From the NCBI GenBank assembly GCA_020056305.1, contig JAGVIA010000039.1, positions 1 to 40,048 on the forward strand: DNA of 40,048 bases. Direction: 5' to 3'. The notes beneath the pieces are model-generated. The model had not been told where the DNA came from. It searched no databases and was given only the letters and a program-made list of their open reading frames with translations. Source of the DNA: an archaeon. Lineage in GTDB: Archaea; Micrarchaeota; Micrarchaeia; Anstonellales; Anstonellaceae. This document shows positions 14,866-36,090 of the stretch, piece after piece (positions within the stretch are counted from its first letter, which is position 1; every line of letters starts with the position of its first letter). A program made the translations under genes and the position numbers.

Positions 14866-16773
14866 TTAGCCCGAGGGTATCGAATCTTTGCAGTAGCCGC
14901 CGTTTGGATTGCTGCATGTGTATGTGCCAGGGCAGTATTCTTGGCATTCCGCATCGTTTTGGCACCATGAAAATTCATTGCATTGAATGTGTGGTGGCGC
15001 TTGGCCGCAAATGCCGTTTCTGCATAAGCCGCCAAAACAGCAATCATATGAAGAGCCGCACGGCTCGCCCTCAAGTGAACATATGCAGGTAGTCTGCTCG
15101 CAATTGCCGCTGCAGCACTCTAAATCCGAGCCGCAAGAGCCGCTTCTTGGAGTGCATGCAGTGCATGTGCGCGTGCTTTCAGAGCACTCAAATCCGCTGC
15201 AGCAGTCGGAATCGCTGGCGCAGCCATCCGCATCCAGCCCGCATGAGGCGGCGCATTGGCCGTTTACGCAATATTGGGATTCGGAGCAGCAGTAGGAGGA
15301 ATCCGCGCAGTCCATGCCTTCTTCGTAGCAGCAGTGATTGTTGTCGCACCTTCCTCCGGGGCAGCATTCTGCATTAACTTCGCACAGCCCGCCGGGAGCG
15401 ACACAGTTTATGATCCTGCAGAAGCCGGGGTTGATAAAAGTTGAGCAGTAGCCGTTGGCACAGCAGCCGCCGTTGTCCGGGTTGCCGCTGTCGCATTGCT
15501 CGGCATTCTCGCTGCAGCGGCAGGTGTATCTTGGAGTGTTGATGTCGCATACGTATCCCTGGCAGCAGCCGCCGTTGTCCGGATTTGCGTTTGTGGCGCA
15601 ATAATCCCCGATGCCAGAGCAGCCGCCCATTCCAAGCATGCATGTGTTGCCAGTGCATGCATTCTCCCCGCAGCAATCCGTTGCTGACAGGCAGTGGCCG
15701 CCCACTTGCGAGCAAACAGTTGAGCACTGGTTCTCCTCGGTGCAATCGTTGCTCAGGCATTCGTTCGGGAAATTGCATGAACCGCTTTCTATCCTGCAAT
15801 ATCCGTTGAAGAAGAATGTGATATCCGGGCAGCAGAGTGCAGGGTTTTGCGTTGCCATGCCCTGCGAAAGGCATCCGCAGTCATCTTGGCAGGTTTCGTA
15901 GTCTTCTTCGCCATTGCATATTTCGTCCCCGCATATTGGAATGGGCTGCATGCAGGTGTTGCCATCGCAGAAATTTGAGCAGCAATTCAAATTGACGCCA
16001 TTGCAGCCGCTTGCGCCATCAGGCATGCAACATGCAGTGGGGCCCTGGCTCCCTATTTGCGCGCATGCGAGGGGCTCGCTTGATTCTGCTGTTTGGCAGC
16101 AGTCCGAAGGCATTTCACATTGGGCGCCGATGCCGCCGAGGCAGCACACGCTTCCAAATCCATCAGGCCGTTCATTGCATGAGGCGCCTTGTGAGCAGCA
16201 TTGGGAAGAATCCGAGCAGAAATCTCCGTTTGCAATGCAGCATTGGCTGCCATCACAAAGTGAGGAGCAGCATTCGGCATTGTCAGCACATGTTTCTCCC
16301 GCTATTGTGCAGAGTGGGATATCGCAATCGGCGCACGGTATGGGAGTTCCATAGTCCCCGCCGCATGTGTCAATCCCATCGGCAGAAGTATAGCAATATT
16401 CCAGCCCGAATTGCGTGCCAGAGGGCATGCCTTCTGGAGTATTTACGCCAATCGTCATGCGCCGCCCTGCCTCAAAAACAATGTTTGCATCTGTTGCGTA
16501 TTTCTCATCCTTTCCAATGGGCTTGACTACGACTTTTCGAAGCCTTGCCGTGTCAGCGGCGTTGTTTTGCATCACTAGGTCAAGCCCTGCGGGCTTTGCC
16601 TTGGAATCAATGACTGCAAAAGGCTGCTGCTGCGCCCATTTTGCGCGCCCCGCATCCTCTCCTGCGGATGCGCCCCAGCCAGGGAAAAAGCCGAGAAGGG
16701 AGGCTGCGATGATGCCGATTATCAGGACCACTGCAAGGATGATTACGTATTCCGTTGTTGAAGTGGCGCGCAT
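14866..16773 (-). CDS. Class III/pilin-like signal plus tandem cystine-knot-like repeat surface protein (shorter paralogue)
   Basis: N-terminus MRATSTTEYVIILAVVLIIGIIAASLLGFF; then about 17 CC pairs in C-x6-C-x5-CC-type modules. Start trimmed to ATG at 16773 with a TATA-like element about 27 bp upstream. Confidence 0.85.
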   Translation of the reverse strand: MRATSTTEYVIILAVVLIIGIIAASLLGFFPGWGASAGEDAGRAKWAQQQPFAVIDSKAKPAGLDLVMQNNAADTARLRKVVVKPIGKDEKYATDANIVFEAGRRMTIGVNTPEGMPSGTQFGLEYCYTSADGIDTCGGDYGTPIPCADCDIPLCTIAGETCADNAECCSSLCDGSQCCIANGDFCSDSSQCCSQGASCNERPDGFGSVCCLGGIGAQCEMPSDCCQTAESSEPLACAQIGSQGPTACCMPDGASGCNGVNLNCCSNFCDGNTCMQPIPICGDEICNGEEDYETCQDDCGCLSQGMATQNPALCCPDITFFFNGYCRIESGSCNFPNECLSNDCTEENQCSTVCSQVGGHCLSATDCCGENACTGNTCMLGMGGCSGIGDYCATNANPDNGGCCQGYVCDINTPRYTCRCSENAEQCDSGNPDNGGCCANGYCSTFINPGFCRIINCVAPGGLCEVNAECCPGGRCDNNHCCYEEGMDCADSSYCCSESQYCVNGQCAASCGLDADGCASDSDCCSGFECSESTRTCTACTPRSGSCGSDLECCSGNCEQTTCICSLEGEPCGSSYDCCFGGLCRNGICGQAPPHIQCNEFSWCQNDAECQEYCPGTYTCSNPNGGYCKDSIPSG

Positions 16774-33180: not shown

Positions 33181-36090
33181 GTGCGGGGCCAAGCAGCAGT
33201 AGAATACATGGTGCTTCTTTCCTCAGTCATCATACTTGCACTAGTTGTGGCTGCGATACTGGGGTACATGCCCGGCATCGGCTCCGAGGCGCGCATAAGC
33301 GAGGCTGACACATACTGGCGCTCTGCGCGGCCGTTTGCAATAATGGAGGCAAAGGAAGTGCCTGCAGACAAAAAGCTCATTCTTGTTTTGCAGAACATTG
33401 AGGCAAGCGAGCTATTTTTGCAAAAAGGGGAGGTGAGGCTCGGGCAGCAGACATTCTCCACCCTGATTGTTGATAAGGATGAGCAGAAGTTTGAGATAGG
33501 GCAGCGGAAAACAATCGAGCTTGGCATCCCGCCAAAGAGCGGGAGCGGATCGCGCACTGAATATTACATTTCATTCGAATACAAATCCCAGGACGGCGTG
33601 GTGCAAAAGGAGATTGGCTCAAAAACGCTCATTGTCATATCCCCGCCGCTGAATTGCGGCGCGGATGGGAGCGCGTGCACTTCGTACGGTGATTGCTGCA
33701 GCGAGGCATGCCAAACTGGCACATGCTGCTCGGATGGCGGCGCGTGCTCCGATGATTCACAATGCTGCAGCGGGCATTGCACTGATGGATGGTGCTGCCA
33801 GCAGGAAGGGCTGTCATGCAGCGGGAACGAGGAATGCTGCGGCGGGACTGCGTGCAACGTTGTGAACAATGTTGGCACTTGCCTTGCGTGCAATGGAGCA
33901 GGGTATTATCCTTGCGAATCGGCTGCCGATTGCTGCCCTGCAATGAGCTGCACTGCGCACGATGAGGAGGATGAGGATGGGAACATGGTGCATGTTTCCG
34001 GCACGTGCTGCCGGAGCACTGGCGCCCGCTGCCGCCATGATTATGACTGCTGCGGAGGGAGCTTCTGCGATTTGTCGCCTGAGGGCCCGACTTCATTCAC
34101 ATGCCAGCTGTGCAAGACGTCAGGCCCGTGCTCGGGGGACAACGAGTGCTGCGGGGACGGCAGGGGCGGCGGGAATTACTACTGCAACATGGGGAGCGGG
34201 CAGTGCGAGGCATGCAAGACAAGCGGCGGCGCATGCACGCTTTCTGACGGCGAAAAATGCTGCGATAATGTTGGCAGGTACACGCCAAGCGACCCGCAGT
34301 ATTGGCGCCAGCTTGCCTGCATAGGAGACCCAGGAGTGTGCTGCCAGGGAGACGGCTACACGACATGCACGTGCCTTGGGCCAGGATGGACTCATGACCC
34401 ATATGAACTGGAAGAAAATGACTGCTGCATTGACAGAAACTTCCCTGGCTGCACAACTGATGCCGACTGCTGCTGGAACAACTATTGTGTTAACGGCGTT
34501 TGCACAGAGGTATTGGATTACGGCAACACATGCGAGCGGGACAGGCAGTGCTTCCAGAATGCGACAGAGGGGGGAAATGGCAATTATACGTGGTGCCTTG
34601 CTGGCCAGTGCTGCATCAATTTCAACATGGGCACGCCGCAATGCACGGACAGCGCCCAGTGCTGCGAAGGCGGCGTGTGCAGGGAGTATGCTGATGGCTC
34701 GAAAGTGTGCTGCAAGCCTCTTGGCGCTGCTGCAAACAATGCGCAGGAATGCTGTGTTATTGGGCCTGATGAAATAAGCGTTGAAAACGGGCTGTGCTGC
34801 CGTGACTCGGGGGGGCAGTGCGCCGGCGCATCCGAATGCTGCAACCAAATCTGCGAAAATGGAGAATGCTGCAGCCATTTTGGAAGCAGATGCTCGCGTG
34901 ATGAGGACTGCTGCCAGAGCGGGGCTGCGGGATTCTGTGATTTGCCTGCCGGCGCCTGCGTGCCGAAATTGGGATATGGACAGGCATGCGAGCGCGGGAT
35001 GCAATGCGCATCAGGCATTTGCAGGGGAGGATATTGCGACAGCGGGTGCCCAAGCGGCATTGCATGCGAGGATGATTCGGAATGCTGCGCAGTGGACGGG
35101 CTTGGTGTCCGGGAGATTTGCGATTCGGTGACTAATTTGTGCGGGCTGCCCTCAGGGGCTGGCGAGCCGTGCACGAGGAATGAGGAATGCACGCCAAGGT
35201 GGTATCCGTCCCTTTATTGCGATTTGGCGGACCAGACTTGCCAGGAGAGCGGAAGGGTCGGAGATAGGTGCGACCCGGCATATCAGGCAAGCTGCTACAA
35301 CATGCCTGGGTTGCCAGGATATTATATTTGCAGCAGCGTGACAGACCCGCCAACTTGCCAGCAGTGCACCATTAACGGAGCATGCGAGAGCAATACAGAG
35401 TGCTGCAGCGGATATTTCTGCGATTCCTCAACACAGCATTGCACGCAGTGCATTGCAGCAGGGAGCTCATGCCCGGCAGGCACGCAATGCTGCCCTGGCG
35501 CAACATGCGATGGGACGATATGCCTCTCCACGTCATCATGCACTATTGATGATAATTGCGCTTCCGGAATGCGCTGCGACCTTGCGACGCATATGTGCTG
35601 CGGGATAAATTCCTGCGGGCAGGGGGTGCAATGCTGCGGCACCCAGACATGCAGCCAGCAGAACACATGCTGCTCGGTGAATGCATGCCCGACTGGGAAC
35701 GGGTGCTGCCCGGGCTTTGCGTGCGATGGCGGCACTTGCTGCTCGCAGCTTGGCACAAGCTGCAGGAGCGTTGAGTGCTGCAGCGGGCAGGGGCTGCAGT
35801 GCATTGATGGGCAGTGCCTGACGTGCTCGGACACAAGCTGCGCAAACGGCGTGCCATGTTGCGGGGATTTGGTTTGTGATGAATCAAACCAGCGGTGCGG
35901 CATACGCTCTGGCGGCCAGTGCAGTAGTGTTGACGATTATTGCTGGGGCGGCGTGCCATGCAATACTGATTACGGCAGGTGCTGCGTTGGGTTAGGTGGA
36001 AGCTGCGCCATGGTTGACTGTTGCAGTGAGGTAGCCCAGTGCAGCGGTGAAAACCCGCCAGTTGAAACGTGCATCCCTAACCCTAACTGA
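33181..36090 (+). CDS. Giant tandem cystine-knot-like repeat surface protein with class III/pilin-like signal (longer paralogue)
   Basis: GTG start; MRGQAAVEYMVLLSSVIILALVVAAILGYMPG N-terminus; stalk-like domain; then about 33 CC pairs by manual count in ICK-like spacing. Confidence 0.9.
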   Translation: MRGQAAVEYMVLLSSVIILALVVAAILGYMPGIGSEARISEADTYWRSARPFAIMEAKEVPADKKLILVLQNIEASELFLQKGEVRLGQQTFSTLIVDKDEQKFEIGQRKTIELGIPPKSGSGSRTEYYISFEYKSQDGVVQKEIGSKTLIVISPPLNCGADGSACTSYGDCCSEACQTGTCCSDGGACSDDSQCCSGHCTDGWCCQQEGLSCSGNEECCGGTACNVVNNVGTCLACNGAGYYPCESAADCCPAMSCTAHDEEDEDGNMVHVSGTCCRSTGARCRHDYDCCGGSFCDLSPEGPTSFTCQLCKTSGPCSGDNECCGDGRGGGNYYCNMGSGQCEACKTSGGACTLSDGEKCCDNVGRYTPSDPQYWRQLACIGDPGVCCQGDGYTTCTCLGPGWTHDPYELEENDCCIDRNFPGCTTDADCCWNNYCVNGVCTEVLDYGNTCERDRQCFQNATEGGNGNYTWCLAGQCCINFNMGTPQCTDSAQCCEGGVCREYADGSKVCCKPLGAAANNAQECCVIGPDEISVENGLCCRDSGGQCAGASECCNQICENGECCSHFGSRCSRDEDCCQSGAAGFCDLPAGACVPKLGYGQACERGMQCASGICRGGYCDSGCPSGIACEDDSECCAVDGLGVREICDSVTNLCGLPSGAGEPCTRNEECTPRWYPSLYCDLADQTCQESGRVGDRCDPAYQASCYNMPGLPGYYICSSVTDPPTCQQCTINGACESNTECCSGYFCDSSTQHCTQCIAAGSSCPAGTQCCPGATCDGTICLSTSSCTIDDNCASGMRCDLATHMCCGINSCGQGVQCCGTQTCSQQNTCCSVNACPTGNGCCPGFACDGGTCCSQLGTSCRSVECCSGQGLQCIDGQCLTCSDTSCANGVPCCGDLVCDESNQRCGIRSGGQCSSVDDYCWGGVPCNTDYGRCCVGLGGSCAMVDCCSEVAQCSGENPPVETCIPNPN

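What the first reader, a model, noticed from the sequence alone, without database searches (positions are those of the whole stretch)
33181..36090. Tandem knottin (inhibitor-cystine-knot-like) array on a class III/pilin-like signal in an archaeon
Seen directly: MRGQAAVEYM + hydrophobic segment, about 120 aa of Cys-free domain, then about 800 aa packed with modules such as C-QQEGLS-C-SGNEE-CC-GGTA-C-NVVNNVGT-C and C-SHFGSR-C-SRDED-CC-QSGAAGF-C-DLPAGA-C. The order C..C..CC..C..C is that of ICK/knottin peptides, best known from animal toxins and plant inhibitors. About 33 CC pairs were counted by hand. Inference: a disulfide-stabilised surface fibre or adhesin, possibly for host-cell contact if this is a DPANN symbiont.
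Basis: partly seen in the sequence, partly recalled or inferred. Interest (0 to 1): 0.78.

Follow-up and report, generated by a model that had tools for sequence, protein, structure and literature searches.

The report
Archaeal pilin carrying tandem cystine-knot modules
A tiny uncultured archaeon (Micrarchaeota) encodes a family of pilus subunits whose outer ends are long chains of small disulfide-braced modules of the kind best known from spider and cone-snail toxins, probably a tough, variable binding surface for sticking to other cells.

Summary
Window 33181-36090 (+) encodes a 969-aa protein: a 3-residue leader plus N-terminal helix (MRG|QAAVEYM..., Glu at +5), a Cys-free beta domain to residue 158, then 146 Cys. 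These tile without remainder into 27 modules: 19 six-Cys (C-x6-C-x5-CC-x3/4-C-x4..-C) and 8 four-Cys. The spacing far exceeds chance. The contig is Micrarchaeota. The N-terminal domain folds like archaeal type IV pilins, and the genome carries pilus ATPases, platform proteins and a prepilin peptidase. Four-Cys modules mostly lose exactly the Cys pairs that an inhibitor cystine knot would bond (1-4 or 2-5). Profiles of the modules find spider ICK toxins and Dickkopf-4 among solved structures, with modest E-values. Related arrays occur in 33 of 301 Micrarchaeota genomes and 0 of 197 Methanothrix-phylum genomes, on pilin, Sec, lipoprotein or single-helix anchors. Best reading: minor or tip pilins displaying a rigid, protease-resistant, sequence-diverse knot array for adhesion. 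Disulfides, export and host contact are not shown. New variant of a known kind.

The parts
33181..36090 (+). Knot-array pilin gene (969 aa, GTG start)
   Evidence: ORF and translation
33181..33264 (+). Class III / type IV prepilin-like N-terminus: MRG | QAAVEY..., Glu at mature +5, hydrophobic helix (about residues 1-28)
   Evidence: Sequence; AF2 helix 4-27; same MRG/MKG-xxxxEY pattern in paralogs and bare pilins; Pfam Class_IIIsignal sub-threshold
33265..33654 (+). Cys-free beta-sandwich pilin domain (residues 29-158)
   Evidence: AF2 helix plus about 8 strands, pLDDT 67.9; Foldseek top hit archaeal type IV pilus 8fk7 E=9.5e-5, rank 8 S. acidocaldarius AAP filament; shared with bare pilins at 35-39% identity
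33655..36072 (+). 27-module Cys array (residues 159-964): 19 six-Cys modules, 8 four-Cys modules, no leftover Cys
   Evidence: Segmentation; shuffle test
34510..34611 (+). Example four-Cys module lacking C1 and C4 (residues 444-477); others at 34966-35037, 35149-35241, 35248-35358, 35524-35598, 35899-35982
34711..34797 (+). Four-Cys module lacking C2 and C5 (residues 511-539)
34342..34425 (+). Irregular four-Cys module (residues 388-415), missing pair ambiguous (called 4,5)
35599..35817 (+). Three tandem six-Cys modules (residues 807-879) used for structure prediction
   Evidence: AF2 pLDDT 76.6, short hairpins near C5-C6 in the modules; Foldseek hits weak but mostly cystine-knot peptides and Dkk4
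14866..16773 (-). Second knot-array pilin in the window: 635 aa from Met at 16773, 94 Cys tiling into 17 modules (13 six-Cys, 4 four-Cys)
   Evidence: N-terminal homology to the first

Best explanation
The gene encodes a minor or tip-type archaeal type IV pilin of a Micrarchaeon. After prepilin peptidase cuts MRG|Q, the N-terminal helix packs into a pilus or stays in the membrane and the beta-sandwich domain joins the filament surface. The C-terminal 800 aa projects as a stalk of 27 head-to-tail inhibitor-cystine-knot-like modules. Each module is probably braced by C1-C4, C2-C5 and C3-C6 disulfides (the 8 four-Cys modules by two), which makes the chain stiff and protease-resistant while loop residues vary freely. 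About a dozen paralogs with the same pilin domain and different arrays suggest a repertoire of surface binders for adhesion to surfaces or partner cells. Shown by sequence: module grammar, pilin-like domain, paralog family, presence of pilus machinery. Inferred: disulfide bonding and its connectivity, filament incorporation, adhesion and host contact.
For: Module grammar and shuffle test. Pilin-like domain fold and conserved sequence pattern shared with bare tandem pilins of 173-198 aa open frame. Prepilin peptidase, T2SSE ATPases and T2SSF platform proteins in the genome, three ATPases sharing a contig with T2SSF genes. ICK connectivity: of 25 interior four-Cys modules, 21 lack a pair that an ICK would bond (18 x 1,4; 2 x 2,5; 1 x 3,6) against 20% expected from a masking control; in the wider set 21 of 26, with 277 intact and 7 five-Cys interior modules. 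Module profile finds ICK toxins (5fzv 0.0016, 1hvw 0.0019) and Dickkopf-4 (0.0078) in the PDB; Pfam Dickkopf_N and conotoxin/Toxin_12 models hit many members, some above cut-off. Array present in 33 of 301 Micrarchaeota genomes, 0 of 197 genomes of the Methanothrix phylum. Very few Lys (6) in the array and inter-module linkers mostly 0-2 residues argue for an intact stalk.
Against: No disulfide, filament or binding data. The (1,4)-less modules look like one inherited subtype, so the 1e-11 p-value, which treats modules as independent, overstates the case. PDB and Pfam similarities are to short Cys-dominated profiles and could be convergent. Foldseek on the three-module model gave nothing significant (E 6-9) and AF2 confidence is moderate. 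The disulfide-forming machinery is unclear: only a short VKOR-like ORF with one Cys where a CxxC would be expected. In other Micrarchaeota the arrays sit on other anchors, so pilus incorporation is not a general property. No ortholog of this array was found in 38 relatives.
Confidence: 0.6

Rival explanations
1. Structural stalk or wall component: the array is a disulfide-stiffened spacer that lifts or cross-links the cell surface, with no specific ligand.
For: Arrays of very different lengths (about 3 to 27 modules) on several anchor types; CARDB-like and RCC1-like domains in some paralogs look like the presented parts.
Against: Loops are extremely diverse (15% non-Cys identity) and there are about a dozen paralogs, more than a passive spacer needs.
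Confidence: 0.25
2. Disulfide-rich modules that are not knotted (ladder, inter-module or domain-swapped disulfides).
For: Foldseek not significant; several four-Cys modules are irregular; 13 CC junctions could allow inter-module bonds.
Against: Every module has an even Cys number in both window proteins; pair losses follow 1-4 and 2-5; closest solved relatives by profile are knotted.
Confidence: 0.2
3. Polyprotein precursor of released knottin toxins or antimicrobial peptides aimed at neighbours.
For: Resemblance to animal ICK toxins.
Against: Pilin anchor, mostly 0-2 residue linkers, no recurrent cleavage site seen and only 6 Lys in the array.
Confidence: 0.07
4. Metal-binding or redox cysteine array (metallothionein-like or electron-conducting).
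For: 18% Cys.
Against: Exported pilin context, few His (8), ICK rather than metal-site spacing.
Confidence: 0.04

Closest known systems
Archaeal type IV pilins / adhesive pili (P. calidifontis 8fk7, S. acidocaldarius AAP 8q30)
   Same: Short leader, Glu+5 helix, beta-sandwich; pilus machinery in the genome
   Different: The solved pilins matched are 136-141 aa chains; here an extra 800-aa Cys array is fused
Inhibitor cystine knot (knottin) peptides, including the double-knot toxin DkTx
   Same: C1-C2-C3C4-C5-C6 order and loop lengths; profile hits 5fzv, 1hvw, Tau-theraphotoxin-Hs1a
   Different: DkTx has two domains (PMC6262176); here 27, in an archaeon, on a pilin, and 8 modules have four Cys
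Dickkopf_N (PF04706), Dkk4 N-terminal domain
   Same: Most frequent non-toxin Pfam hit to the modules (22 of 35); PDB 9x64 E 0.0078
   Different: This protein scores below cut-off (20.6 < 25); long tandem array and pilin anchor
SCREPs (secreted cysteine-rich repeat proteins; PMC6262176)
   Same: Tandem Cys-rich repeat architecture with an avidity hypothesis
   Different: The passages read describe bacterial and eukaryotic classes; the only 'archaea' match in that text was in its reference list

Membership tests
Archaeal type IV pilin | Class III leader: G/A at -1, Glu+5, hydrophobic helix | tested here: met
   MRG|QAAVEYM, helix 4-27; but Pfam PF04021 only 12.9 bits against 23.7
Archaeal type IV pilin | Helix plus beta-sandwich fold | tested here: met
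   AF2 pLDDT 67.9 from two sequences; Foldseek top 8fk7 E=9.5e-5, TM about 0.42-0.48; TRAP and other beta-sandwich chains also match
Archaeal type IV pilin | Cognate peptidase, ATPase and platform in the genome | tested here: met
   PF01478, PF00437 x4, PF00482 x6
Archaeal type IV pilin | Incorporation into a filament | not testable with these tools
   Needs EM or proteomics
Inhibitor cystine knot (knottin) | Cys order C1 C2 C3C4 C5 C6 with ICK loop lengths | tested here: met
   19 of 27 modules
Inhibitor cystine knot (knottin) | Disulfides 1-4, 2-5, 3-6 | tested here: inconclusive
   Paired Cys losses fit (21 of 25 interior four-Cys modules); no coordinates or chemistry
Inhibitor cystine knot (knottin) | Knotted fold | tested here: inconclusive
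   AF2 76.6 with short hairpins; Foldseek best hits mostly knottins but E 6-9
Dickkopf_N (PF04706) | Score above the curated cut-off for the window protein | tested here: not met
   20.6 against 25 bits; a relative's doublet reaches 26.4

The most novel reading that the evidence does not exclude
Micrarchaeota run a paralogous, diversifying repertoire of pilus-displayed cystine-knot arrays as recognition modules for partner cells, an archaeal counterpart of the animal and plant knottin binding scaffolds.
Probability: 0.3. Interest if true: 0.85.

Novelty: new variant of a known kind. Interest (0 to 1): 0.62.

Why it matters
How DPANN archaea recognise partners is a long-standing gap. Type IV pili are implicated in Saccharibacteria (PMC12206443) and proposed for Nanohaloarchaeum (PMC11291902). 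A genetically defined family of pilins tipped with long knottin-like arrays gives concrete, expressible candidates for the binding end, and extends the ICK-like framework to archaea at a scale (27 modules in one protein, about a dozen such genes in a 1.38 Mb genome) for which the full-text searches here found no report.

Tried and rejected
Searching relatives with the whole array as a single sequence found nothing, probably because only Cys is conserved; module profiles did. NCBIfam and phmmer against the PDB gave no hits. The 33 CC pairs alone are weak evidence (shuffle mean 22). Literature terms for archaeal knottins, DPANN plus Dickkopf, and similar found no report (absence in this library only). 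Similar arrays elsewhere: one Streptomyces plasmid at 22% identity, none in viral contigs. VKOR as the oxidant: only a short VKOR-like ORF, so not used as support. Mobile-element origin: no sign seen, housekeeping genes on both sides.

Full report
Observation. The window ORF at 33181-36090 (+) is real. It has a pilin-like N-terminus, 158 Cys-free residues, and 146 Cys afterwards. A spacing model tiles all 146 into 27 modules with none left over: 19 six-Cys (C-x6-C-x5-CC-x3/4-C-x4..-C) and 8 four-Cys. Shuffles of the same composition rarely give such spacing (9 strict motifs against 0.06), although the CC count alone (33 against a mean of 22) is less striking.

What it is. RpoB' on the contig is 84% identical to a Micrarchaeota genome, and ribosomal, elongation-factor and RNA polymerase genes surround the gene. 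A search of the genome found about 20 places sharing the N-terminal domain: tandem bare pilins (173-198 aa open frames) and about a dozen proteins with Cys arrays attached, including a second in this window at 14866-16773 (-) whose 94 Cys also tile completely, into 17 modules. AF2 on two window sequences gives a helix plus beta-sandwich; the best Foldseek match is an archaeal type IV pilus (8fk7, E 9.5e-5) and the S. acidocaldarius AAP filament is rank 8, though TRAP and other beta-sandwich chains also score. A prepilin peptidase, four T2SSE ATPase matches and six T2SSF matches are present.

Is it a knot? In arrays of several genomes, interior four-Cys modules lack C1+C4 (18), C2+C5 (2) or C3+C6 (1) in 21 of 25 cases. 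Masking random pairs shows the method itself would give 20%. The (1,4) class is probably one inherited subtype, so the independent evidence is smaller than the p-value suggests, but the (2,5) class is a second pair that also fits. Profiles of module pairs hit ICK toxins and Dickkopf-4 and several toxin and Dickkopf Pfam models. The AF2 model of three modules has short hairpins near C5-C6, while Foldseek hits are non-significant, though mostly cystine-knot peptides.

Distribution. Arrays occur in 33 of 301 Micrarchaeota genomes at E<=1e-4 and 0 of 197 genomes of the Methanothrix phylum. Outside the pilin family they sit behind Sec-type leaders, lipoprotein-like leaders or single N-terminal helices.

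Mechanism and rivals. The best-supported account is a pilus-displayed, disulfide-braced adhesive stalk with diversified loops; a passive spacer and a non-knotted disulfide chain are the main rivals. Disulfides, export and ligand are not shown. Searches of the held literature found no description of archaeal knottin arrays, which is not proof of absence.

Noticed in passing
   Followed up: partly
L005-L007 (G000:C89:13303-15379): Three tandem bare pilins of 173-198 aa open frame with the same N-domain: likely major pilins.
   Followed up: partly
L040 (G000:C20:24000-38500): Paralogs combining knot modules with CARDB-like (983-aa frame) and RCC1-like (966-aa frame) repeats.
   Followed up: no
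L149 (G000:C22:27854-28078): Short VKOR-like ORF (103 aa) with a single Cys where a CxxC would be expected; disulfide oxidant of this genome unclear.
   Followed up: partly
L205 (G015:C11), 270-aa frame: Pilin with near-identical repeated modules at its C-terminus, suggesting growth of arrays by recent tandem duplication.
   Followed up: no
L193-L197 (order relatives): Same modules behind a single N-terminal hydrophobic helix instead of a pilin domain.
   Followed up: partly
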